This document shows, piece by piece, positions 1-9,726 of a DNA stretch of 64,000 bases. The stretch's first letter is position 1, and every line of letters begins with the position of its first letter. This DNA comes from Pseudoduganella dura (lineage in GTDB: Bacteria > Pseudomonadota > Gammaproteobacteria > Burkholderiales > Burkholderiaceae_D), in assembly GCF_009727155.1 (NCBI RefSeq), contig NZ_WNWM01000002.1:2666001-2730000 (forward strand). Reading direction: 5' to 3'. The position numbers and the translations under genes are program-made. Below the pieces are notes generated by a model that saw nothing but the letters and a program-made list of their open reading frames with translations, did no database searches and was not told where the DNA came from.

Positions 1-2109
1 CACCGCGACAGCGCGACGGAAGAACGCGATGCGATCAATGGATGGTGCGCCGTTCGCAGCCTTCAGCCGGCTAGTGCGTCCCTGCATAGCTGGGACTACG
101 ATTATCCATCCGCCCGCAGCTTCATGACGACCGGCGCGACGGGCGCCACAGACCAGGGCGTTCGCGGCAACCGGCTTGCCGCCCTGCTTGAAGACCATGA
201 GGTGGCCGCTCCGCACATTGCCGACAGCGCGGTGGACCTTACCCGCCTCGGCGCGCTGCAGATGGGCCGTCACGATTACGCCGCGAAGTGCTTCCGCGGC
301 GAAGGCGGCGTGCGCGCACTGGCGGTCGGCGAATGGATCCGGATCGATGGACACCCTGAGCTCGACATGCATCCGACCGGCGAACGCCAATTCGTCATCA
401 CCGCGCAGCAGATTATTGCGCAGAACAACTTGCCGGTGGAGTTTCGCGCCAGGGTGGAACAGCTGTTCAGCCGCAGCGGCTGGGTTTTCGATCCCCACCT
501 GCCGCGTGCAAGAACAGCCAGCCGCTACAAGACGCAATTCGAATGCGTGCGGCGCGGAATCCGCATCGTGCCCCGGTATGACCCTCGTTATGACCTGCCA
601 GCGCCTCGGCTGCAGAGCGCTATCGTGGTCGGCCCGCCGAATGAGGAAATCTGGTGCGACGAATTTGGCAGGGTCAAGATCCGCCTTGCCGGCACCCGGC
701 CTGCCGACCATGAGCATGCGGCCGGCGCCGGCAGTTCCGATACCGATGCGGACTCCGCCTGGGTACGCGTGGCGTCGAGCTGGGCCGGAAATGGCCCAGG
801 CACCGGCAATCAGTTCGGAACCCGCTTTCTCCCCTCGGTGGGCACCGAGGTATTGATCGATTTTCTCGGCGGCGACCCCGACAAGCCCGTCATCGTCGCC
901 CAGCTGTTCAACCGCGCGGCGCCGCCGCCGGGGTTCAGCAAGGAAGATGGCCTGCCCGGCAGCAAATACCAGTCGGGCATCCGCAGCCGTGAAATCCAGG
1001 GCCAGTGCGGCAACCAGGTACGGATCGACGACACGCCTGGCCAGATCAATATCCAGGTCGCCAGCGACCACGGCGGCAGCCAGCTCAATCTCGGCTACCT
1101 GACCGAGCCGCGGCACGAAGGCCGGGGAGCCGCGCGCGGCGAAGGAGCGGAACTGCGCACCGACGAACACCTGGCGCTGCGCGCCGCGAAAGGCATGCTG
1201 GTCAGCGCATGGAAAGGCCTCGGCGGTGCAACGAGAACCGGTGCCCAGCTGGCCCGCGACGACTATTTGCGCCTGCTGCGCGAATGTGGCGAGCTGTGCA
1301 GAACGCTGGGCGAGTATGCGGCCGGCCACCAGGGTCTTGCGTCAAGCAGCCAGGAGCAGGACGCGCTGCGCGCACGCTTCGAAGCATGGGAAGCCGGCAG
1401 CAACACGGATCCCAAGACACACCCGCCAGCCGAGCCGGTCATCGCCGTAACCGCACCGGCGGGAATGGGGTTTGCCACGTCCAAAGCCGTTGTGACCTAT
1501 GCCGGCAGCACCATCGATACGGTGGCCCAACAGCACCTGCAACTGACCGCGGGCCAGTGCTTCACGCTCAACGCCGGCAAAGGCATTTCCCTGTTCTCGC
1601 ACCATGACGGTTTGAGCGCCATCGCCCACCAGGGAAAGCTGCTCCTGCAAAGCCAGCACGACGACACCACCGTCAACGCGGCACGCAATCTCACGCTGAC
1701 ATCTTCGGAAGGCAAGCTCCGTGCTATGGCCAAGGTGATCGAACTGGTGGCCGACGACGGTTCGTTCATCAAGATCGGCGATGGCAGCATCACTTTCGGC
1801 AGCAAGAACCCGCTGAAGTTTCTTGCACCCGACTTTACGTTCGATGCCGCAAGCACGCTCGCGGCCGAGTTGCCGGTTTTTGACAGCGCGGGGGCGGACC
1901 AGCAATTCCTAGCCCATTTCGAAGAAGGCGTGCCAGGCGACGAGCCGCTCGTGCCGACACCGGTTCCGGGGGCGAACATCAAGATCAGGGTTGACGATGG
2001 CAGCACCGTGGAAGGCCGCAGCGACGTGGGCGGCAAGTCGGAAGTGGTGGCGCGGGAGACGATGCGGATGGCATCCATCGTCGTAATGAGCAGCGGCGAC
2101 AAGGCATAG
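1..2109 (+). CDS. vgrG: Type VI secretion tip protein VgrG (5' end outside window)
   Basis: The reading frame is open from the first base, so the gene starts before the window. The ATG at 124 is internal. VgrG forms the trimeric spike of the type VI secretion system and carries effectors. Visible parts are the end of the gp27-like region, the gp5 OB-fold (EFGRVKIRL, then WVRVASSWAG and GTEVLIDFLGGDPDKP) and a DUF2345-type beta-helix region (GKGISLFSHHDGL to SFIKIGDGSITFGSKNP). The tail after about position 1920 is short and acidic. No HExxH protease extension like that of Pseudomonas VgrG2b is seen. The tle3-like gene starts 10 bases after the stop, implying co-transcription and a dedicated cargo. 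Confidence 0.95.
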   Translation, partial: HRDSATEERDAINGWCAVRSLQPASASLHSWDYDYPSARSFMTTGATGATDQGVRGNRLAALLEDHEVAAPHIADSAVDLTRLGALQMGRHDYAAKCFRGEGGVRALAVGEWIRIDGHPELDMHPTGERQFVITAQQIIAQNNLPVEFRARVEQLFSRSGWVFDPHLPRARTASRYKTQFECVRRGIRIVPRYDPRYDLPAPRLQSAIVVGPPNEEIWCDEFGRVKIRLAGTRPADHEHAAGAGSSDTDADSAWVRVASSWAGNGPGTGNQFGTRFLPSVGTEVLIDFLGGDPDKPVIVAQLFNRAAPPPGFSKEDGLPGSKYQSGIRSREIQGQCGNQVRIDDTPGQINIQVASDHGGSQLNLGYLTEPRHEGRGAARGEGAELRTDEHLALRAAKGMLVSAWKGLGGATRTGAQLARDDYLRLLRECGELCRTLGEYAAGHQGLASSSQEQDALRARFEAWEAGSNTDPKTHPPAEPVIAVTAPAGMGFATSKAVVTYAGSTIDTVAQQHLQLTAGQCFTLNAGKGISLFSHHDGLSAIAHQGKLLLQSQHDDTTVNAARNLTLTSSEGKLRAMAKVIELVADDGSFIKIGDGSITFGSKNPLKFLAPDFTFDAASTLAAELPVFDSAGADQQFLAHFEEGVPGDEPLVPTPVPGANIKIRVDDGSTVEGRSDVGGKSEVVARETMRMASIVVMSSGDKA

Positions 2110-2119
2110 GAGAACATAC

Positions 2120-4408
2120 ATGGGCTACCAGAAGATTCCCTACGAATGCGGCACCCGCGATGCGGTACTGGAAAAGGGCCGTACACAGTGCAAGGGTGTG
2201 ACCGTGCGCCGCCGCCTTCCCGGCAACATCATCGTGGTCCATGGCGTCAACGATGTGGGCACCAGCTACGCTGCCGTGGAGGAAGGGCTGTGCGCCGGGC
2301 TGGAAGAGCGGCTGCTGCGGCGCTTCCAGCCGGCCGGATACAAAAACCCTGCGGACGCCGATAAAAATAGCGTGGTCGAAGATCCCGACGCGGTGTTCTA
2401 CAAGCGCACGGTAATAGACGACACCAATAGCCCGGTCATTCCCTTCTACTGGGGATACCGGGAACTGAACAGCGAAACCAGGATTGTCAACGGCCAGAAA
2501 ACCGACCGCTACGGCAACCGCCTGGACAAGGATTCTTCCAAGGGCGGCGGGCCATTCGGCAATGCCACCAACACCTTGCCGGACATGTGGAACAGGGGCA
2601 TGTGCGCGCCCTTCGATCCGTCCGGCGACGCGATCCGTCCCCTGCGCAGCGCGCCCGGGCGCATGTATATGGTGCTGGCCGCGCGCCGTCTGGCAGCGCT
2701 GATCTCGATGATCCGCGATTACGATGCCAATGAGACCGTGACCATCGTCGCGCACAGCCAGGGGTGCCTGCTGAGCCTGCTTGCGCAAGCCTTCCTGCTG
2801 GAGCAGGGCCTGCGCCCTGCCGACACGCTGGTACTGACCCATCCACCCTACGGCCTGGATGAGAATGCAAACTGGTTAACCTGGGGAGCCGAACTGATCC
2901 ACAGCGGTACCGACAGCGCGATGGAACCCTACTATCACCTGATCAATGCGCGGCAGACCATGCATGCCCGCCTGCAGACGCTGGTCAACATCGTGCGCGG
3001 CGTGGCCAGCGCCAAGGCCGCCATGCCGGCATTCACCACGCTGACTGACGACGCGCAGCATGGCGGCATGGTCGACCAGCGCTGGAAGGCAGTGGCCGAC
3101 CGCGACAACCGCGGCAAGGTCTACCTGTACTTCTGCCCGGAAGACATGACGGTGGCGCTCGACAATGTGCAGGGCATCGGCTGGCAGGGCGTGCCGGACT
3201 TCATTAACGGCACACAGTACAAAAGCGACTATCTGCCGGTCTTCGACCCTCGCACGCAAACGCGCAAGGAACAATATCCAACCCGACCGATGGCCAGGAG
3301 CGTCACGCGCAAGCCGCTGGAAGAACTGGGGCCATCGTTTCACCAGCGCGTATTCACCGACAAGATGCGCTTCGACCCGGGCACGGGCAAGTTCGAATGG
3401 ACCCTGGTGGGCCAGCCCCCGCACGACTTCCCCCTGCGCGTGGCAAGCAAGGCGCTCGATCCGCACGGCAGGGTCGAGGACGACAAGGCCCACGTGGAAG
3501 CCAGCGGCCGCACGCTGCGCAAGCGGCTCCCGGTGGCCACATGGCCGATCGATCAGCGCGCCAGTCCGGTCGAACAGCGTTTCGGCATCCGGCGGATCAA
3601 TGGCGAAGCACTGGCCAGGCCGTGCCGCGCCGACCTGCGGGGCAACCAGATCGATGCGGACAAGCTGCCGACCGGCTCGCCACAGTCGCGCCTGCCGGCC
3701 GAAGACCGCGGGCCGTGCGAGGAAGTCGACCCGATCGATGCCGCGACCGCCACTGCCAATGGCGGCCTGCTCCGCTGGCGCAAGATCCGTCCCGATCCGT
3801 CGGGCCACCGGCATTTCCCGGCAGTGCCGGAGCCCCTGTCCAGTGCGGAACTGCAGCGTGTTTCAGACCTGTACAACGCGGAAAACGCACCGAAGGACGC
3901 TGCAAGGGACGACCTTTTTACCGTTACGCAGGCCTACCGCGATCCCAGCGGTGTCGTCAAGGCCATCATTCAGGAAAGCCCGAACGCAGCCCGACTGCGA
4001 TGGCAACAGACCGTCAGTGCGAAGTCGTTCCATGGCGTGATCATCGGCAGCCGGGAAAACCATCGGCGCGTGACTGCGTATGACGTTGCCATTGGCGGCG
4101 GAAAGGCGAGCAGTGATCCGAATTTTTATGCGTATTTGTGCGCGGTGGCGGATTGGCGGTTGAAGAAGCTTCAAAGGTCGGATAATCCGCGTAGCGGAAT
4201 TTTACAATGGGGAGATTTCCAGAGCCGATTCCGGGTTTATTGGGCAGACGAGCTCCAGTGGCGAAAAGACCTTATTGAAGGCAATGCCAATTACTACAGC
4301 ACTGGAACTTTGCCGACTTGCTTACCCATACTGACCGGAAATTTGTGGGAGATCATTGTATCTGAAACGATGAGTGGAAGAACAGTAGAGAAAAATCCAA
4401 AAAAATAA
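2120..4408 (+). CDS. tle3: Tle3-family type VI lipase effector
   Basis: 762 residues. The N-terminal part is an alpha/beta-hydrolase: an early IIVVHGVNDVG strand/oxyanion region and a nucleophile elbow AHSQG with Ser about 213 (the first Gly is Ala, as in many Tle lipases). The C-terminal part, from about residue 440, matches the Tle3 C-terminal domain (formerly DUF3274). Tle3 proteins are antibacterial phospholipases delivered by VgrG with help from the Tla3 adaptor. The gene sits directly after vgrG and before a tla3 homologue, as expected of an effector-adaptor operon. No signal peptide is seen, as is usual for type VI cargo. Codons for about the last 80 residues (from about 4170) are AT-rich compared with the body. 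The segment 3616-4169 is repeated at 6262-6815. Confidence 0.88.
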   Translation: MGYQKIPYECGTRDAVLEKGRTQCKGVTVRRRLPGNIIVVHGVNDVGTSYAAVEEGLCAGLEERLLRRFQPAGYKNPADADKNSVVEDPDAVFYKRTVIDDTNSPVIPFYWGYRELNSETRIVNGQKTDRYGNRLDKDSSKGGGPFGNATNTLPDMWNRGMCAPFDPSGDAIRPLRSAPGRMYMVLAARRLAALISMIRDYDANETVTIVAHSQGCLLSLLAQAFLLEQGLRPADTLVLTHPPYGLDENANWLTWGAELIHSGTDSAMEPYYHLINARQTMHARLQTLVNIVRGVASAKAAMPAFTTLTDDAQHGGMVDQRWKAVADRDNRGKVYLYFCPEDMTVALDNVQGIGWQGVPDFINGTQYKSDYLPVFDPRTQTRKEQYPTRPMARSVTRKPLEELGPSFHQRVFTDKMRFDPGTGKFEWTLVGQPPHDFPLRVASKALDPHGRVEDDKAHVEASGRTLRKRLPVATWPIDQRASPVEQRFGIRRINGEALARPCRADLRGNQIDADKLPTGSPQSRLPAEDRGPCEEVDPIDAATATANGGLLRWRKIRPDPSGHRHFPAVPEPLSSAELQRVSDLYNAENAPKDAARDDLFTVTQAYRDPSGVVKAIIQESPNAARLRWQQTVSAKSFHGVIIGSRENHRRVTAYDVAIGGGKASSDPNFYAYLCAVADWRLKKLQRSDNPRSGILQWGDFQSRFRVYWADELQWRKDLIEGNANYYSTGTLPTCLPILTGNLWEIIVSETMSGRTVEKNPKK
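3616..4169 (+). repeat. Direct repeat A, copy 1 (inside tle3)
   Basis: About 554 bp almost identical to 6262-6815, encoding Tle3 residues about 500-683. Most differences lie in a short patch near 3660-3715. Identity stops abruptly after the AAGAAGC at 4163-4169, where the two copies begin to diverge and become AT-rich. Confidence 0.9.
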
Positions 4409-4537
4409 CTATAATTAATTTCCTCACACCGGAACATTAATAAAAATTGATATGCATCAAAATTAACAGACTTGCCTAGCCCTTATGCACTATGGATCGC
4501 ATTCGAAGTTCCAATTTAATAGAAAATGGAGGCCATA

Positions 4538-6145
4538 ATGAATAAATTGCATTGGATTGCAATTATACTTTCATTTGTTGCATTAATTTTTGGCGGAATG
4601 TGGTGCGTAGCAAAGCGAAAGGCAATAGAGCAAGAACGGACAGAACAAATCAATGCATCTGGATTGCAACAGAAATCGACAACCAAACATGTCGATGAAA
4701 ATAGGCATAAATATATTCTTGAAGTAATTGGACTAGGCATTACGGTCGATAAATATCGACAGGATGCGCTTTGGAAAATACTTCAAAAGGGCAACCCCTA
4801 TCAAAGCATTCGAGAAAAAGATCCCAAGAAGTATGAGTGGGCCCTATTCGACAAATATGGCATTTCCGGTGGCAGAGCATGTGACGCGTTGGAGAATGGC
4901 GCCGGCCCCTCGCCAATGTACTGGGGCGTTCCTAGTTTCTATGCAGGCTCACCAATTGCAGATCCTTCAGCACAGCCTAGTTTGATTGATCCAATAGCCG
5001 GTTTGGCTGCTAGCGCGGTAGGTACGGGCATGGCATGGCATTTATTTGTTACTGGCCAATGGCAGCTATCTGAACGGCCTGATCAATTGCTTGAAGAAAT
5101 ATTCGAATTTTTTGATACCTATCCAGACATTCCGTACGTGGTGCTCCTATCTGAAGATAGCCTTACAACTCGTGATCGCAATCTTCCTCTAGAGTCATCA
5201 CGACTAGTCAAGGACGGTTTTTACATTCCTGAAATGCCCGACTCCTCCTCAGTACTTGTATTGGCACGTCGTGAGCGCGTGGAGCCTTTACGATCTTTTG
5301 TATGGAAAGACCCCGATAATGACTATCTGCAGGAAACACTGCGTAGAACGTATTTTGCGCTTCAAGATAATGTTCCAACCCCCGAGCGTCAGAAAAATCC
5401 TGGAAAACTGGTTCCAGTAGGCCGCCAACCCACTGTCGCCGAATGGCTCGCCACTGCCGATGCGTTCGCCAAAGGCAAACGCACCGATGCCAGCCTTGTC
5501 GCGCCCATCTTGGGGAACTTCAAACACTGGAATCACCAGCCGCCAAAGAACTGGAAACCAACCCCGTGGTTCCCTGTTCCCTGGAACAGCAACCAGCTTG
5601 CCGCGTTCGACAATTTGCCCACGCTCGGCTTCATCCATCGCCCCGTGTTCGTCCGTTTCGAAGACGAGCACGGCAAGCCGGTGACACGCCGAGAGCAGCG
5701 GCAGAAATTGCTGGAAGCCGGCTGGCAGCAGGCACTGCAAACACTGCCCGAAGCGGAGCGCGCCAAGGGCCCGGCCCGCATTATCGGCGCCTTCGGCAAC
5801 CACACCGAACAACGGATTGCCTTCGAAGGCATGTTGCACCGTTACGCCGAACAGGGCGGTCCGGAAATCGATACCGGCAACATGGCGCAGTTCATCGGCA
5901 CCGACAACCGCATCGGCAACATGGGCGCGGCGACCTTCTTTGTACAGATGGCGCTGGGCGTGATGGGCAGCTACAACGCCGGCGGCATATCGGCCGCCGT
6001 TAACCTGCGTGAACTCGGCGGCGCCAGCATCGTATTCGTCAGCCCGCCACCGGACGACAAGCGCAAGCAGCAGGGGGAACAATTCCGACACAACGTCGAG
6101 CCTGCGATCGATCCGAAGAATTACGAGGTGCCGGCTGTCGAGTGA
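4538..6145 (+). CDS. tla3: Tla3-like type VI lipase adaptor (DUF2875), copy 1
   Basis: 535 residues. Tla3 proteins load Tle3 lipases onto their VgrG. The start at 4538 is preferred over the in-frame ATG at 4526 because GGAGG (4528-4532) lies 5 bases before it. Residues about 5-25 form a membrane anchor, followed by a soluble DUF2875-type region (conserved LEVIGLGITVDKYRQ, ENGAGPSP, GVPSFYAGSPIADP, LFVTGQWQLSERPD). The first half is AT-rich: bases 4561-4620 contain only 21 G or C. The second half, from 5404, has the normal high-GC composition and is nearly identical to the second copy. The gene is separated from tle3 by an AT-rich gap of 129 bases. Confidence 0.85.
   Translation: MNKLHWIAIILSFVALIFGGMWCVAKRKAIEQERTEQINASGLQQKSTTKHVDENRHKYILEVIGLGITVDKYRQDALWKILQKGNPYQSIREKDPKKYEWALFDKYGISGGRACDALENGAGPSPMYWGVPSFYAGSPIADPSAQPSLIDPIAGLAASAVGTGMAWHLFVTGQWQLSERPDQLLEEIFEFFDTYPDIPYVVLLSEDSLTTRDRNLPLESSRLVKDGFYIPEMPDSSSVLVLARRERVEPLRSFVWKDPDNDYLQETLRRTYFALQDNVPTPERQKNPGKLVPVGRQPTVAEWLATADAFAKGKRTDASLVAPILGNFKHWNHQPPKNWKPTPWFPVPWNSNQLAAFDNLPTLGFIHRPVFVRFEDEHGKPVTRREQRQKLLEAGWQQALQTLPEAERAKGPARIIGAFGNHTEQRIAFEGMLHRYAEQGGPEIDTGNMAQFIGTDNRIGNMGAATFFVQMALGVMGSYNAGGISAAVNLRELGGASIVFVSPPPDDKRKQQGEQFRHNVEPAIDPKNYEVPAVE
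5404..6145 (+). repeat. Direct repeat B, copy 1 (3' half of tla3)
   Basis: 742 bp nearly identical to 8061-8802, ending at both stop codons with a constant offset of 2657. It starts at AAAACTGGTT, where the two adaptor genes change from divergent to near-identical DNA. Confidence 0.92.
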
Positions 6146-7051
6146 GTGCTTCGCGCCCCCTTTGCACATAAGCGCGCCCATCTGGCCATCAGCCTTATGC
6201 GATGCGGCCTGCTTCCGGCTTGGCGAGGCATGGCTTCCATCGTCGTAACGAGCAGCAGCGACAGGCCGTGCCGCGCCGACCTGCGCGGCAACCAGATCGA
6301 TGCGGACAAGTTGCCATCGAATTCCCCAAGGTCGCGCTTGCCTGTTAAGGACCAGGGTCCCTGCGAAGAAGTCGACCCGATCGATGCCGCGACCGCCACT
6401 GCCAATGGCGGCCTGCTCCGCTGGCGCAAGATCCGTCCCGATCCGTCGGGCCACCGGCATTTCCCGGCAGTGCCGGAGCCCCTGTCCAGTGCGGAACTGC
6501 AGCGTGTTTCAGACCTGTACAACGCGGAAAACGCACCGAAGGACGCTGCAAGGGACGACCTTTTTACCGTTACCCAGGCCTACCGCGATCCCAGCGGTGT
6601 CGTCAAGGCCATCATCCAGGAAAGCCCGAACGCAGCCCGACTGCGATGGCAACAGACCGTCAGTGCGAAGTCGTTCCATGGCGTGATCATCGGCAGCCGA
6701 GAAAACCATCGGCGCGTGACTGCGTATGACGTCGCCATTGGTGGAGGAAAAGCGAGTAGTGATCCGAATTTTTATGCGTATTTGTGCGCGGTGGCGGATT
6801 GGCGGTTGAAGAAGCCGCAGAAATCCGACAAACCGCGACGTGGAATAATGAAGTGGGAAACTTTCAAAGAAGAATTTTCAATTTATTGGAATGATGAACT
6901 CCCATGGCGCAGAACGCTTATTGAGGGCAATTCATACTATTACAATAACGGAACTCTTCCGGAATGCCTTCCTATACTCTTTGGAAAATTATGGGAAATA
7001 ATTATTTCCGAAACAATGAGCGGCAAACAGGTAACCGGGAGAAATAAATGA
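6146..7051 (+). pseudogene. Tle3 C-terminal fragment with a VgrG-tail remnant
   Basis: An open frame of 301 codons beginning with a GTG directly after the tla3 stop. From 6262 on it matches Tle3 residue about 500 to the end. It lacks the whole alpha/beta-hydrolase domain, including the AHSQG serine, so it cannot be a lipase. Just before that point, 6230-6267 matches the 3' end of vgrG (2068-2105), in the same reading frame (MASIVV, then SSxD). The join lies at a shared AGGC, consistent with deletion between the end of a duplicated vgrG and the middle of a duplicated tle3. The frame is intact over 900 bases and has its own diverged tail, so expression as an orphan C-terminal domain is possible. 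The stop overlaps the next start (ATGA at 7048). Confidence 0.75.
6262..6815 (+). repeat. Direct repeat A, copy 2
   Basis: Partner of 3616-4169 (offset 2646). After 6815 the coding sequence turns AT-rich and diverges from copy 1 at DNA level, although the encoded tails stay related (both contain LIEGN, GTLP, CLPIL, SETMSG). Confidence 0.9.
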
Positions 7052-8802
7052 CTGCAAAGCTTTTCGCCTCAACTCCTCCCAGCCATCCGAATTTAGTGAA
7101 ATATATACTATTCGCAGCATTAACGATCATCATCGTAAGCTTTATATGGCTCATATTTCAGGAAACTTTTTTTCACGTAGAAATGGAAACAACTATGAAT
7201 AAAATACGATGGCTCAGCATTTCAATTTTGATCGCCTTTTCAGCATGTTTTGGTAGTTGGTTTTTTACTAATAAGACGGTTACTAGCCACCAGAAGGATT
7301 GGCAAAAGCGGTCAGATCAACCTAAACAAGAGAAAACAAAGGCGCTGAATCTGCAAGCTCATCGAGAATACGCATTGGAAGTAATCAGCCTCGGCATTAC
7401 TGTCGAAAAATACCGGCAAAATTCATTGTGGAAAATTCTTCAGGCAGGACAACCCTACGAGAGTATTAGAGAACAGGATCCAAAAAAATATGATTGGCAA
7501 AGATTCGACAAGGATGGGGTTTCAGGCTCTAGAGCATGTGATGCACTTGAAAATGGAGCTGGTCCATCACCAACTCACTGGGGGGTCCCAACCTTCTATG
7601 CTGGATCGCCAATAGCCGATCCAGATGGACAGCCGAGCGCAATGGATCCGATGGCCGGGCTAGCGAGCAGTGCAATTGGTACCGGCATAGCGTGGCATTT
7701 GTTTGTTACTGGCCCTTGGAAGCTGTCTGAAAGACCTGATGATTTACTAGAGGAAGTATTTGCTTTTTTCGATTCTCATCCTGATCTCCCATACGTGGTT
7801 CTCCTATCTGAAGACAGTTTGAGCACAAGAAACGACAACCTTCCTCATGGAGCACTTAAATTAGTTAAAGATGGCTATTACATCCCCGCCATGCCAGACT
7901 CTACCGCCGTATTTATTCTTGCCCGCCGCGAACGCGTCGAACCGCTGCGTCCTTTTGCTTGGAAAGACCCGGATAACGACTATCTCCAAGAGACACTTCG
8001 TAGAACATATTTCGCGCTGCAAGACAAAGTACCTACTGCCGAAAGACTCGCAAATCCTGAAAAACTGGTTCCTGTAGGCCGCCAACCCACTGTCGCCGAA
8101 TGGCTCGCCACTGCCGATGCGTTCGCCAAAGGCAAACGCACCGATGCCAGCCTTGTCGCGCCCATCTTGGGGAACTTCAAACACTGGAATCACCAGCCGC
8201 CAAAGAACTGGAAACCAACCCCGTGGTTCCCTGTTCCCTGGAACGGCAACCAGCTTGCCGCGTTCGACAATTTGCCCACGCTCGGCTTCATCCATCGCCC
8301 CGTGTTCGTCCGTTTCGAAGACGAGCACGGCAAGCCGGTGACACGCCGAGAGCAGCGGCAGAAATTGCTGGAAGCCGGCTGGCAGCAGGCACTGAAAACA
8401 CTGCCCGAAGCGGAGCGCGCCAAGGGCCCGGCCCGCATTATCGGCGCCTTCGGCAATCACACCGAACAACGGATTGCCTTCGAAGGCATGTTGCACCACT
8501 ACGCCGAACAGGGCGGTCCGGAAATCGATACCGGCAACATGGCGCAGTTCATCGGTACCGACCACCGGATCGGCAACATGGGCGCGGCGACCTTCTTCGT
8601 GCAGATGGCGCTGGGCGTGATGGGCAGCTACAACGCCGGCGGCACGTCAGCCGCCGTCAACATGCGCGAAGCCGATGGCGCCAGCATCGTGTTCATCAGC
8701 CCACCTTCCGACGACAAGCGCAAGCAGCAGGGGGAACAATTTCGGCACAACGTGGAACCGGCAATCGATTCGAAGAATTATGAGATGCCGGTTGTCGATT
8801 GA
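7048..8802 (+). CDS. tla3: Tla3-like type VI lipase adaptor (DUF2875), copy 2
   Basis: 584 residues from 7048, which is preceded by GGGAG six bases upstream and overlaps the previous stop (ATGA), suggesting coupled translation. The sequence homologous to copy 1 begins only at the ATG at 7195 (residue 50), so the first 49 residues are an extra piece containing a second hydrophobic helix (about residues 17-38). A start at 7183 or 7195, giving a protein of the same length as copy 1, is a real alternative. Residues about 54-72 are the anchor equivalent to that of copy 1. The N-terminal half is AT-rich and diverged from copy 1. From 8061 the two are nearly identical. Probably loads a different or related Tle3. 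Confidence 0.82.
   Translation: MTAKLFASTPPSHPNLVKYILFAALTIIIVSFIWLIFQETFFHVEMETTMNKIRWLSISILIAFSACFGSWFFTNKTVTSHQKDWQKRSDQPKQEKTKALNLQAHREYALEVISLGITVEKYRQNSLWKILQAGQPYESIREQDPKKYDWQRFDKDGVSGSRACDALENGAGPSPTHWGVPTFYAGSPIADPDGQPSAMDPMAGLASSAIGTGIAWHLFVTGPWKLSERPDDLLEEVFAFFDSHPDLPYVVLLSEDSLSTRNDNLPHGALKLVKDGYYIPAMPDSTAVFILARRERVEPLRPFAWKDPDNDYLQETLRRTYFALQDKVPTAERLANPEKLVPVGRQPTVAEWLATADAFAKGKRTDASLVAPILGNFKHWNHQPPKNWKPTPWFPVPWNGNQLAAFDNLPTLGFIHRPVFVRFEDEHGKPVTRREQRQKLLEAGWQQALKTLPEAERAKGPARIIGAFGNHTEQRIAFEGMLHHYAEQGGPEIDTGNMAQFIGTDHRIGNMGAATFFVQMALGVMGSYNAGGTSAAVNMREADGASIVFISPPSDDKRKQQGEQFRHNVEPAIDSKNYEMPVVD
8061..8802 (+). repeat. Direct repeat B, copy 2 (3' half of second tla3)
   Basis: Partner of 5404-6145. 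The few substitutions are scattered, with slightly more change in the last 120 bases. The near-identity points to recent duplication or ongoing gene conversion. Confidence 0.92.
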
Positions 8803-8883
8803 GTGTTTACACTTTCTCGACGCTATCGATCAGGTTCGAACAAACTGGGCACCCACGAATTTTACGCTTACGAAAGGAACAAC

Positions 8884-9150
8884 ATGCGTAACGTCATTCG
8901 CCTCGGCGACCTCACCACCCATGGTGGAAAAGTCATTTCGGCAAAAGCCACGCACTTCAAGGTTGCCGGCATTGCCGTGGCCTGCGTGGGGGACCTGTGC
9001 GTATGCCCAATCCAGGGTCACAGCAACTGCCGGATCGTCAGCGGATCGGAGCGGCATCATATCAACGGCGTGGCGCTGGCCTTCGAAGGCGACGAGACGA
9101 GCTGTGGTGCCAAGCTGATCTCAAGTTTGGCTAACTTCAAGACCAGCTGA
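8884..9150 (+). CDS. PAAR-domain type VI tip protein
   Basis: 88 residues. PAAR proteins sharpen the VgrG spike tip and bind a metal. The sequence opens with MRNVIRLGDLTTHGGKVIS, the usual PAAR entry, and ends with GDETSCGAKLISS, which closes the small cone fold. Several Cys and His residues (ACVGDLCVCP, QGHSNC) could hold the metal. The ATG at 8884 is chosen over an in-frame upstream ATG at 8803 because AAAGGA lies a few bases before it and the fold begins there. It is the last gene of the type VI island and lies tail-to-tail with rpsJ. Confidence 0.88.
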   Translation: MRNVIRLGDLTTHGGKVISAKATHFKVAGIAVACVGDLCVCPIQGHSNCRIVSGSERHHINGVALAFEGDETSCGAKLISSLANFKTS

Positions 9151-9170
9151 ACGCGAGCGCTCAAAGAAAA

Positions 9171-9199
9171 ACGGGCACCCGCCAATGCGAAGTGCCCGT
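9171..9199 (-). terminator. Intrinsic terminator after rpsJ
   Basis: Arms ACGGGCAC (9171-9178) and GTGCCCGT (9192-9199). Read on the minus strand the hairpin is followed by TTTTCTTT, so it ends the str operon transcript. On the plus strand the following run is poor in T, so it serves the PAAR gene less well. Confidence 0.75.
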
Positions 9200-9255
9200 T
9201 CCTTGATCCGGCGGCCGTCACGTCAGTGAAGCCGCCCGATGCGAATCTTGACAGA

Positions 9256-9573
9256 TTATTGCAGCTTGATTTCGACGTCCACGCCAGCTGGCAGGTCCAG
9301 CTTCATCAGCGCGTCGACGGTCTTGTCGGTTGGATCCACGATGTCCATCAGGCGCTGGTGGGTACGGATTTCGAACTGGTCGCGCGAGGTCTTGTTCACG
9401 TGCGGGGAACGCAGCACGTCGAAACGCTGGATACGGGTCGGCAGTGGAACCGGACCTTTGACAACGGCGCCGGTGCGCTTGGCGGTGTCAACGATTTCCA
9501 GTGCGGACTGGTCGATCAGTTTGTAGTCGAAAGCCTTCAGGCGGATGCGGATCTTTTGATTTGGGGTGGACAT
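9256..9573 (-). CDS. rpsJ: 30S ribosomal protein S10
   Basis: 105 residues ([18 protein letters not shown] to the end), the normal length. S10 sits in the 30S head and, as NusE, joins antitermination complexes. AAGGA precedes the ATG. It is the last gene of the operon here: a terminator follows about 60 bases later and the next gene is on the opposite strand. In most beta-proteobacteria rpsJ continues into rplC and the S10 operon, so this separation is notable. Confidence 0.98.
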
Positions 9574-9726
9574 GCTGATTCCTTAAAAAGAACGAACCGG
9601 GCATCGGTGGAAACCTTGCTCCGGCAATGTAGAAATATGCAACACACTACTAAACGACTGCTCTGACGTAAAAGCAGCGGGACCGGCATGATATCACGCC
9701 CTGTCCCGCTGCATCAACGCAAAAAC

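What the first reader, a model, noticed from the sequence alone, without database searches (positions are those of the whole stretch)
3616..8802. Tle3 tail / Tla3 N-terminal half as an exchangeable cassette between near-identical flanks
Seen: two tandem tle3-C/tla3 units share almost identical DNA in 3616-4169/6262-6815 and 5404-6145/8061-8802. Between them the block 4170-5403 differs from 6816-8060 and is AT-rich in both copies. The block covers exactly the last 80 or so Tle3 residues plus the first half of Tla3. Inference: this pair of ends is the cognate effector-adaptor contact, swapped as one cassette by homologous recombination in the flanks, much like tip modules of Rhs or CDI toxins. 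I know of no description of this for Tle3/Tla3.
Basis: partly seen in the sequence, partly recalled or inferred. Interest (0 to 1): 0.75.

Follow-up and report, generated by a model that had tools for sequence, protein, structure and literature searches.

The report
Swappable matching ends of toxin-partner genes
A bacterial killing toxin and its neighbouring partner protein carry matched, highly variable stretches that appear to be exchanged between related bacteria while the DNA on both sides stays alike, which suggests that these stretches decide which partner (most likely the antidote) fits which toxin.

Summary
Two tle3-C/tla3 units are 98% identical at 3742-4169 and 5414-5977 but 41-71% identical in the block between (4170-5413 versus 6816-8070); outside the tracts they are 82-84% identical. 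Pseudoduganella umbonata has one unit at the corresponding site with a third allele and the same edges. Over 107 units from same-family genomes the low-identity block most often begins at Tle3 residue ~683 and ends at Tla3 ~232 or ~300; synonymous sites drop with it, so exchange rather than selection alone explains it. The Tle3 tail co-varies with Tla3 ~101-240, even in a group where the intervening Tla3 1-60 is one type. Exceptions exist (chimera L114). The partner is disputed: Berni 2019 calls the P. aeruginosa homologue PA0259 an adaptor, Wood 2019 a periplasmic immunity protein. Tandem Tla3 copies with diverged N-halves but near-identical C-halves (9 of 12 loci), hydrophobic N-termini, and Tla3 kept behind tle3 remnants favour immunity. 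Structure prediction failed, so contact is inferred.

The parts
124..2109 (+). vgrG (3' part; the whole gene is L170:9272-12109, 945 aa, beginning outside the window, preceded by tssF and tssG)
   Evidence: Pfam VgrG domains; TssF and TssG upstream
2120..4408 (+). tle3, intact frame, 762 aa; PF24322 hydrolase 33-359 and PF11678 Tle3_C 613-754
3737..3961 (+). Tle3 residues 540-614: second variable segment in the family, one type in both window units
3742..4169 (+). near-identical tract 1 (copy in unit 2: 6388-6815)
   Evidence: 8 mismatches of 428, in 8 codons, all synonymous
4170..5413 (+). exchanged block, allele 1: Tle3 tail, spacer, Tla3 N-half
4170..4408 (+). Tle3 tail, residues 684-762, allele 1
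4526..6145 (+). tla3-1 (DUF2875), 539 aa; PF11394 and PF20995
4841..5221 (+). Tla3-1 residues 106-232, the stretch that co-varies with the Tle3 tail
5414..5977 (+). near-identical tract 2 (copy in unit 2: 8071-8634)
   Evidence: 11 mismatches of 564
6146..7051 (+). tle3-C orphan ORF without the hydrolase domain (301 aa from GTG 6146)
   Evidence: PF11678 but not PF24322
6230..6263 (+). remnant of the vgrG 3' end (matches 2068-2101, 91%) at the deletion junction
6816..8070 (+). exchanged block, allele 2
6816..7051 (+). Tle3 tail, allele 2
7048..8802 (+). tla3-2 (DUF2875), up to 584 aa; the start that aligns with tla3-1 is METTMNK, downstream of 7048
7498..7878 (+). Tla3-2 stretch corresponding to residues 106-232 of Tla3-1
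8803..9150 (+). PAAR gene
   Evidence: PF05488

Best explanation
The block is an allelic recognition module shared by two genes: the last ~75 residues of the T6SS phospholipase Tle3 and residues ~100-240 (up to ~300) of the DUF2875 protein encoded behind it. Alleles are exchanged between related genomes by homologous recombination in the conserved DNA on both sides. Shown: mosaic, recurrent edges, synonymous-site drop, co-variation. Inferred: that the two stretches touch, and that the DUF2875 protein is the exported immunity protein of Tle3 in these loci (perhaps also its carrier), so that a swap changes toxin and antidote specificity together. Window unit 2 is then an older toxin-immunity pair displaced downstream: its toxin lost the catalytic part, the tail and the partner were kept, and gene conversion homogenised the conserved parts.
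For: Third allele with the same edges in P. umbonata. 145 related pairs among 107 units: 104 have a strong low-identity segment; starts concentrate at Tle3 681-700 (42) and 541-560 (26), ends at Tla3 281-320 (44) and 221-240 (26). Four-fold sites in all 145 pairs: 0.774, 0.795 and 0.767 in Tle3 33-359, Tle3 620-680 and Tla3 305-513, but 0.573 in the tail and 0.561 in Tla3 106-232. Tail against Tla3 106-240: partial r 0.40 over 78 units, the highest of the segments tried (0 of 300 permutations reach it); tail against Tla3 106-232 inside two lineages 0.64 and 0.67, and 0.50 and 0.61 after also controlling Tla3 1-60 and 61-105 (0 and 1 of 1000 permutations); in the 12-unit lineage it drops to 0.06 at Tla3 61-90, between the two stretches. 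Immunity: the homologue PA0259 rescues prey only with its signal peptide (Wood 2019 PMC7376260, passages) and is listed as Tli3 in PMC10281587 (passages). 118 of 127 near-full Tla3 have a hydrophobic N-terminus, against 3 of 127 in a body stretch. 64 of 105 full tle3 genes lie in a row vgrG-tle3-tla3-PAAR with gaps under 250 nt, so no other gene fits inside the row. In 9 of 12 loci with two or more near-full tla3 the copies differ in 106-232 (0.65-0.82 in the most divergent pair) but are 0.90-0.98 identical in 305-513. A near-full tla3 stands behind a tle3 remnant in W, L079, L142 and L165.
Against: Berni 2019 found PA0259 cytoplasmic and Tle3-binding and named it an adaptor; a 2023 survey keeps that naming (PMC9846239, passages). 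DUF2875 proteins without a hydrophobic N-terminus occur in VgrG loci without a recognised tle3 (L143, L147, L148; L148 with a muramidase), as an adaptor would. Coupling is imperfect: among 145 pairs 25 share Tla3 106-232 but not the tail and 4 the reverse (threshold 0.84); L114 is a clear chimera. In the 14-unit lineage the tail correlates slightly better with Tla3 1-60 (0.68) than with 106-232 (0.64), and also with Tla3 305-513 (0.40); in the 12-unit lineage it also correlates with Tle3 33-359 (0.38), so linkage and kinship contribute. 13 of the 104 strong segments end at Tle3 601-620, outside the block. Three of 12 array loci (L111, L136, L066) lack the N/C contrast. Only 6 of 17 groups of related units show the strict edges (7 with a wider start). 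Pairs are not independent. No usable structure was obtained.
Confidence: 0.62

Rival explanations
1. One reading: the block is the contact between effector and cytoplasmic adaptor, and matching serves loading onto VgrG, not immunity.
For: Berni 2019: the Tle3 C-terminal domain binds PA0259 in two-hybrid tests, and PA0259 binds the VgrG2b TTR domain. DUF2875 proteins without a hydrophobic N-terminus sit in VgrG loci without a recognised tle3. The conserved C-half could be the VgrG-binding part (inference).
Against: Several Tla3 behind one Tle3 with diversified N-halves (9 of 12 loci), hydrophobic N-termini in 118 of 127, Tla3 kept where tle3 is a remnant, and the immunity phenotype of Wood 2019 (passages). 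I would not expect these of an adaptor alone (inference).
Confidence: 0.2
2. Both functions in one protein (overlaps with the best explanation): the conserved C-half (and residues ~60-105) serves VgrG or general Tle3 binding, and the variable N-half gives immunity specificity.
For: Both 2019 papers describe the same gene PA0259. The C-half is conserved and near-identical between tandem copies, the N-half is not.
Against: No direct test here; the two papers disagree on localisation.
Confidence: 0.3
3. Unit 2 is only a decaying duplicate: a tandem duplication lost part of one tle3, and the block drifted or was hit once by recombination, with no function.
For: Truncated tle3 with a vgrG remnant at the junction. 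The two window copies are closer to each other than to any other locus compared, in Tla3 106-232 and in 305-513.
Against: Both ORFs of unit 2 are open. The 8 codon differences in Tle3 542-683 are all synonymous. The N/C contrast recurs in eight other array loci. Four-fold identity of the two units is 0.56 and 0.37 in tail and Tla3 62-232 against 0.87 and 0.91 in Tle3 620-680 and Tla3 305-513.
Confidence: 0.15
4. No exchange: the block simply evolves faster because it is unconstrained or under diversifying selection.
For: Tail and Tla3 N-half are among the most variable parts family-wide, with Tle3 540-614.
Against: Four-fold sites fall from 0.76-0.81 to 0.40-0.42 in the 34 strict pairs (pairs chosen for a low block) and from 0.77-0.80 to 0.56-0.57 in all 145. 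Sharp edges. Pairs whose tail is 0.97 identical while the neighbouring Tle3 is 0.91 and Tla3 62-296 is 0.69 (L087-L114).
Confidence: 0.04

Closest known systems
Tle3 with DUF2875 partner PA0259 of Pseudomonas aeruginosa (Tla3 in Berni 2019 PMC6560169; Tli3 in Wood 2019 PMC7376260)
   Same: Same two families, partner directly downstream; the Tle3 C-terminal domain binds the partner in two-hybrid tests.
   Different: No exchangeable block or matched alleles in the sections (Berni) and passages (Wood) that I saw.
Orphan immunity arrays of Vibrio cholerae T6SS (Kirchberger 2017, PMC5361080; abstract and section 13 read)
   Same: One effector followed by several immunity genes, a displaced effector 3' end, and homologous recombination.
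   Different: There effector-immunity modules are added or replaced; here a short module spanning the ends of two genes changes inside otherwise conserved genes, and tandem copies keep near-identical C-halves.
CDI and Rhs toxin tips with orphan toxin-immunity modules (recalled; mentioned in PMC5361080 section 13)
   Same: Variable toxin C-terminus plus neighbouring partner vary together; orphan toxin tails kept downstream.
   Different: In those the tip is the toxic domain (recalled); here the catalytic domain (PF24322) lies outside the block. The partner's C-half also stays outside it.
Rhs NADase effector-immunity exchange in Serratia (PMC10539506; title and start of abstract in a search listing only)
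   Same: Exchangeable effector-immunity pairs of a T6SS.
   Different: Rhs effectors, not a lipase with a catalytic domain outside the variable part.
Tle3 clusters of Ralstonia (PMC11481896; passages)
   Same: Putative immunity arrays or orphan immunity genes reported for one of three Tle3 cluster types (aux2, not aux7 or aux9).
   Different: No allele exchange inside the genes is described in the passages seen.

Membership tests
Tle3 phospholipase family | PF24322 catalytic domain and PF11678 C-terminal domain over the curated cut-off | tested here: met
   362.1 and 87.0 bits for window 2120-4408. The unit 2 fragment has PF11678 only, so it is not a complete Tle3.
Tla3/DUF2875 family | PF11394 and PF20995 over the curated cut-off | tested here: met
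   Both domains in both copies
Tle3 immunity proteins of the DUF2875 kind (Wood 2019) | export signature at the N-terminus | tested here: inconclusive
   Hydrophobic N-terminal segment in both window copies and in 118 of 127 near-full homologues; judged by hydrophobicity only, topology not predicted
Tle3 immunity proteins of the DUF2875 kind (Wood 2019) | protects against Tle3 | not testable with these tools
   needs a competition or toxicity assay
T6SS adaptor Tla3 (Berni 2019) | cytoplasmic, binds Tle3 and VgrG | not testable with these tools
   needs fractionation and binding assays
Polymorphic toxin tip exchange (CDI/Rhs) | the exchanged part carries the toxic activity (recalled) | tested here: not met
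   The catalytic PF24322 domain (33-359) lies outside the block
Polymorphic toxin tip exchange (CDI/Rhs) | toxin C-terminus and neighbouring partner vary together between conserved flanks | tested here: met
   with exceptions such as L114
V. cholerae-type immunity arrays | extra partner genes downstream, with effector remnants | tested here: met
   12 loci with two or more near-full tla3; tle3 remnants before tla3 in W, L079, L142, L165. Between tandem tla3 copies a tle3 remnant was seen only in W.
V. cholerae-type immunity arrays | the extra genes confer immunity | not testable with these tools
   needs an assay

The most novel reading that the evidence does not exclude
DUF2875 is an immunity family with a built-in split: a fixed C-half, kept uniform among tandem copies by gene conversion, and a swappable N-half matched to a swappable ~75-residue tail of a toxin whose catalytic domain stays outside the exchange. 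Units like window unit 2 are standing cassettes from which the cell can switch toxin-antidote specificity by recombination with the intact copy next door.
Probability: 0.35. Interest if true: 0.82.

Novelty: new variant of a known kind. Interest (0 to 1): 0.7.

Why it matters
Two 2019 papers give the same P. aeruginosa gene (PA0259) opposite roles. Natural matched alleles and chimeras of the pair make the question directly testable and point to the residues involved. It also suggests specificity exchange in a lipase effector whose toxic domain stays constant, unlike the tip exchange of CDI and Rhs toxins (recalled), and that the tandem DUF2875 genes found here in 12 loci are candidate antidote arrays.

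Tried and rejected
Structure: AlphaFold on Tle3 (A2, 4 rows) and on a single chain Tle3 361-762 plus Tla3-1 (A1, 7 rows) gave mean pLDDT 36.2 and 38.9; rejected as meaningless, no fold search was run. Solved structures: the Tla3-1 query matches 8yz3 with its best stretch at 331-513, the Tle3 query matches 8boz over 31-367; no stretch in the tail was listed. NCBIfam gave no family match of use (one irrelevant match far below its cut-off). An order-wide search found 11 of 399 genomes with PF20995, 6 of them outside the family; no regions were fetched. A first within-lineage test failed because two fragmentary units gave empty values; it was repeated without L079 and L065. The pure-selection reading was rejected on synonymous sites. 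Strict one-cassette exchange was rejected because of L114. PMC6653060 and PMC12542774 (passages) mention DUF2875 only in a table or as a chaperone family.

Rows dropped: of 147 Tla3 ORFs, 107 units with a Tle3 C-part and a near-full Tla3 were kept for the mosaic test, 101 of them with a full tle3; 78 for the correlation; 14 of 15 and 12 of 13 for the two lineages. The two fused Tle3-Tla3 frames (L084, L132) were left out of the units.
Full report
WHAT IS THERE. The locus is tssF-tssG-vgrG-tle3-tla3-[tle3-C]-tla3-PAAR, followed by genes that I recognise from memory as EF-Tu and EF-G (translations). The first tle3 is complete. The second lacks the hydrolase domain and begins at a junction with a 34-bp remnant of the vgrG 3' end.

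OBSERVATION. Base-level comparison gives five zones: 3616-3741 diverged (22 of 126 mismatches), 3742-4169 near-identical (8 of 428), 4170-5413 the block (41-71% identity by part), 5414-5977 near-identical (11 of 564), 5978-6145 diverged (27 of 168). The block is AT-rich in the window. The same tendency, weaker, is seen over the aligned units (105-107 per segment named here, 101 for Tle3 33-359): mean GC 0.50 in the tail and 0.51-0.58 in the four parts of the Tla3 N-half, against 0.58-0.63 in Tle3 33-359, Tle3 620-680 and Tla3 305-513.

THIRD ALLELE. P. umbonata has one unit at the corresponding site: the DNA beyond PAAR in the window (9162-9600) is 94% identical to L159 11219-11665. Its DNA is 92-95% identical to both window units in the 60-base steps from 4040 to 4159, drops to 0.45-0.50 in the next step, stays at 0.23-0.75 through the tail and the Tla3 N-half, and is 0.85 again from 5420 (0.73-0.92 in the steps up to 5959). 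In 3620-3741 unit 2 is closer to P. umbonata (0.93) than unit 1 is (0.81), so unit 2 may be the older resident (inference). The P. umbonata locus is itself altered: only the 3' part of vgrG was found, and its tla3 frame runs on into unrelated sequence.

GENERALITY. A search of 392 same-family genomes found PF20995 in 81; 74 genus genomes gave 20 with a Tla3 match (the two sets overlap). From the fetched loci 107 units were aligned by codon. Among 145 related pairs (Tle3 641-683 at least 0.85 and Tla3 297-513 at least 0.80 identical), the best single low-identity segment was strong in 104. It starts at Tle3 681-700 in 42 and 541-560 in 26, and ends at Tla3 281-300 in 28, 301-320 in 16 and 221-240 in 26; in 13 it ends at Tle3 601-620 and so concerns the other variable segment. 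Grouped by relatedness, 6 of 17 groups show the strict edges and 7 of 17 the edges with a wider start; the other ten hold two to four units each. Four-fold synonymous sites fall with total identity, which selection on the proteins alone does not explain. The 34 pairs were chosen for a low block; the 145 were not.

MATCHING. Over 78 units, after removing the effect of Tle3 33-359, Tle3 620-680 and Tla3 300-513, the tail correlates with Tla3 106-240 at 0.40, with 1-60 at 0.33, with 241-296 at 0.23, with Tle3 540-614 at 0.21 and with 61-105 at -0.10. Inside a 12-unit lineage the correlation is 0.06 at Tla3 61-90, 0.45-0.76 in the windows starting at 81 to 221, and -0.46 to 0.36 in later ones; on the Tle3 side it is highest in the windows from 680 to 749. 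In a 14-unit lineage it is 0.50-0.72 from Tla3 1 to about 170 and 0.58 at 201-250, and the tail correlates slightly better with Tla3 1-60 (0.68) than with 106-232 (0.64), so linkage cannot be excluded there. With Tla3 1-60 and 61-105 also controlled, tail against 106-232 remains 0.50 and 0.61. Allele typing in a 13-unit group shows one type of Tla3 233-296 in 13 units and one of Tla3 1-60 in 12, while tail and Tla3 106-232 types change together except in L059 and L063. In the 15-unit group L114, L102/L107 and the degenerate L079 depart from the rule, and L103 and L106 in two 4-unit groups. L114 has the tail and Tla3 1-45 of L087/L091 but the Tla3 core of L096/L117. At threshold 0.84 the 145 pairs divide into 32 both same, 84 both different, 25 tail different with core same, 4 the reverse (with another minimum length, gave 30, 84, 27, 4). 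Pairs are not independent, so no probability is claimed from them.

WHICH PARTNER. Berni 2019 (abstract, two results sections and part 1 of the discussion read) shows binding of the Tle3 C-terminal domain to PA0259 and calls it a cytoplasmic adaptor. Wood 2019 (passages) reports that the same gene, read from an upstream start, rescues tle3-sensitive prey only with its signal peptide, and notes export signatures in DUF2875 homologues. A 2023 paper (PMC10281587, passages) lists PA0259 as Tli3 and reports complementation; another 2023 paper (PMC9846239, passages) keeps tli3 and tla3 as separate genes. In the loci here, 64 of 105 full tle3 genes lie in a row vgrG-tle3-tla3-PAAR with gaps under 250 nt, so no other gene fits inside the row; genes outside it were not surveyed for immunity. 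118 of 127 near-full Tla3 have a hydrophobic N-terminus. Twelve loci have two or more near-full tla3. In nine of them copies differ in 106-232 but are 0.90-0.98 identical in 305-513; L111, L136 and L066 do not show this. A near-full tla3 stands behind a tle3 remnant in W, L079, L142 and L165; in L165 the upstream VgrG frame carries a Het-C domain. Against this, L143, L147 and L148 have DUF2875 proteins without a hydrophobic N-terminus and no recognised tle3. A double role is therefore possible. In the E. coli AIEC system Tle3 has another immunity protein of a different fold, two of whose loops contact mainly the Tle3 C-terminal part (PMC9860674, passages).

MECHANISM. Most likely: alleles of the tail and its recognition stretch arrive together by homologous recombination in the conserved DNA (a 58-bp and a 171-bp exact run border the block in the window). 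A whole new vgrG-tle3-tla3 unit can also displace the old one downstream, where the toxin is truncated and the partner kept. Gene conversion then homogenises the conserved parts of neighbouring copies. Steps shown: mosaic and recurrence. Steps inferred: direction of transfer, contact, immunity, gene conversion, use of unit 2 as a reserve.

KNOWN OR NEW. Immunity arrays with displaced effector ends are known in V. cholerae (PMC5361080, abstract and section 13), and arrays or orphans were noted for one Ralstonia Tle3 cluster type (PMC11481896, passages). I found no description of exchange inside Tle3/DUF2875 in searches for Tle3 with Tla3 (4 papers), DUF2875 (5), Tle3 with Tli3 and structure (13), Tle3 with PA0259 (5), Tle3 with immunity, tandem and duplication terms (5) and a mixed search (11). 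The library holds only part of the literature, and not all listed papers were opened.

LIMITS. One genome per species, most of them unnamed; relatedness groups are few; no structural test; localisation judged by hydrophobicity only.

Noticed in passing
L084:5046-6746 and L132:2905-4932: Open frames that join a complete Tle3 hydrolase domain (PF24322) directly to the last part of a Tla3 C-terminal domain (PF20995 87-136), both in genome G201.
   Followed up: partly
window 3737-3961; family-wide Tle3 residues ~540-614: A second variable segment in Tle3 whose types assort largely apart from those of the tail.
   Followed up: partly
L143, L147, L148: DUF2875 proteins without a hydrophobic N-terminus in VgrG loci without a recognised tle3; L148 has an N-acetylmuramidase.
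   Followed up: partly
L159 / L161: P. umbonata keeps tle3, but only the 3' part of vgrG was found and the tla3 frame runs on into a protein with a PEP-CTERM-like end (motif recognised from memory).
   Followed up: no
L055, L089, L136: A PAAR gene or PAAR remnant lies between tandem tla3 copies, as if whole tle3-tla3-PAAR units had been stacked.
   Followed up: no
L165:3-3521: A VgrG frame with a Het-C domain extension sits before a short tle3 tail remnant and a near-full tla3.
   Followed up: no
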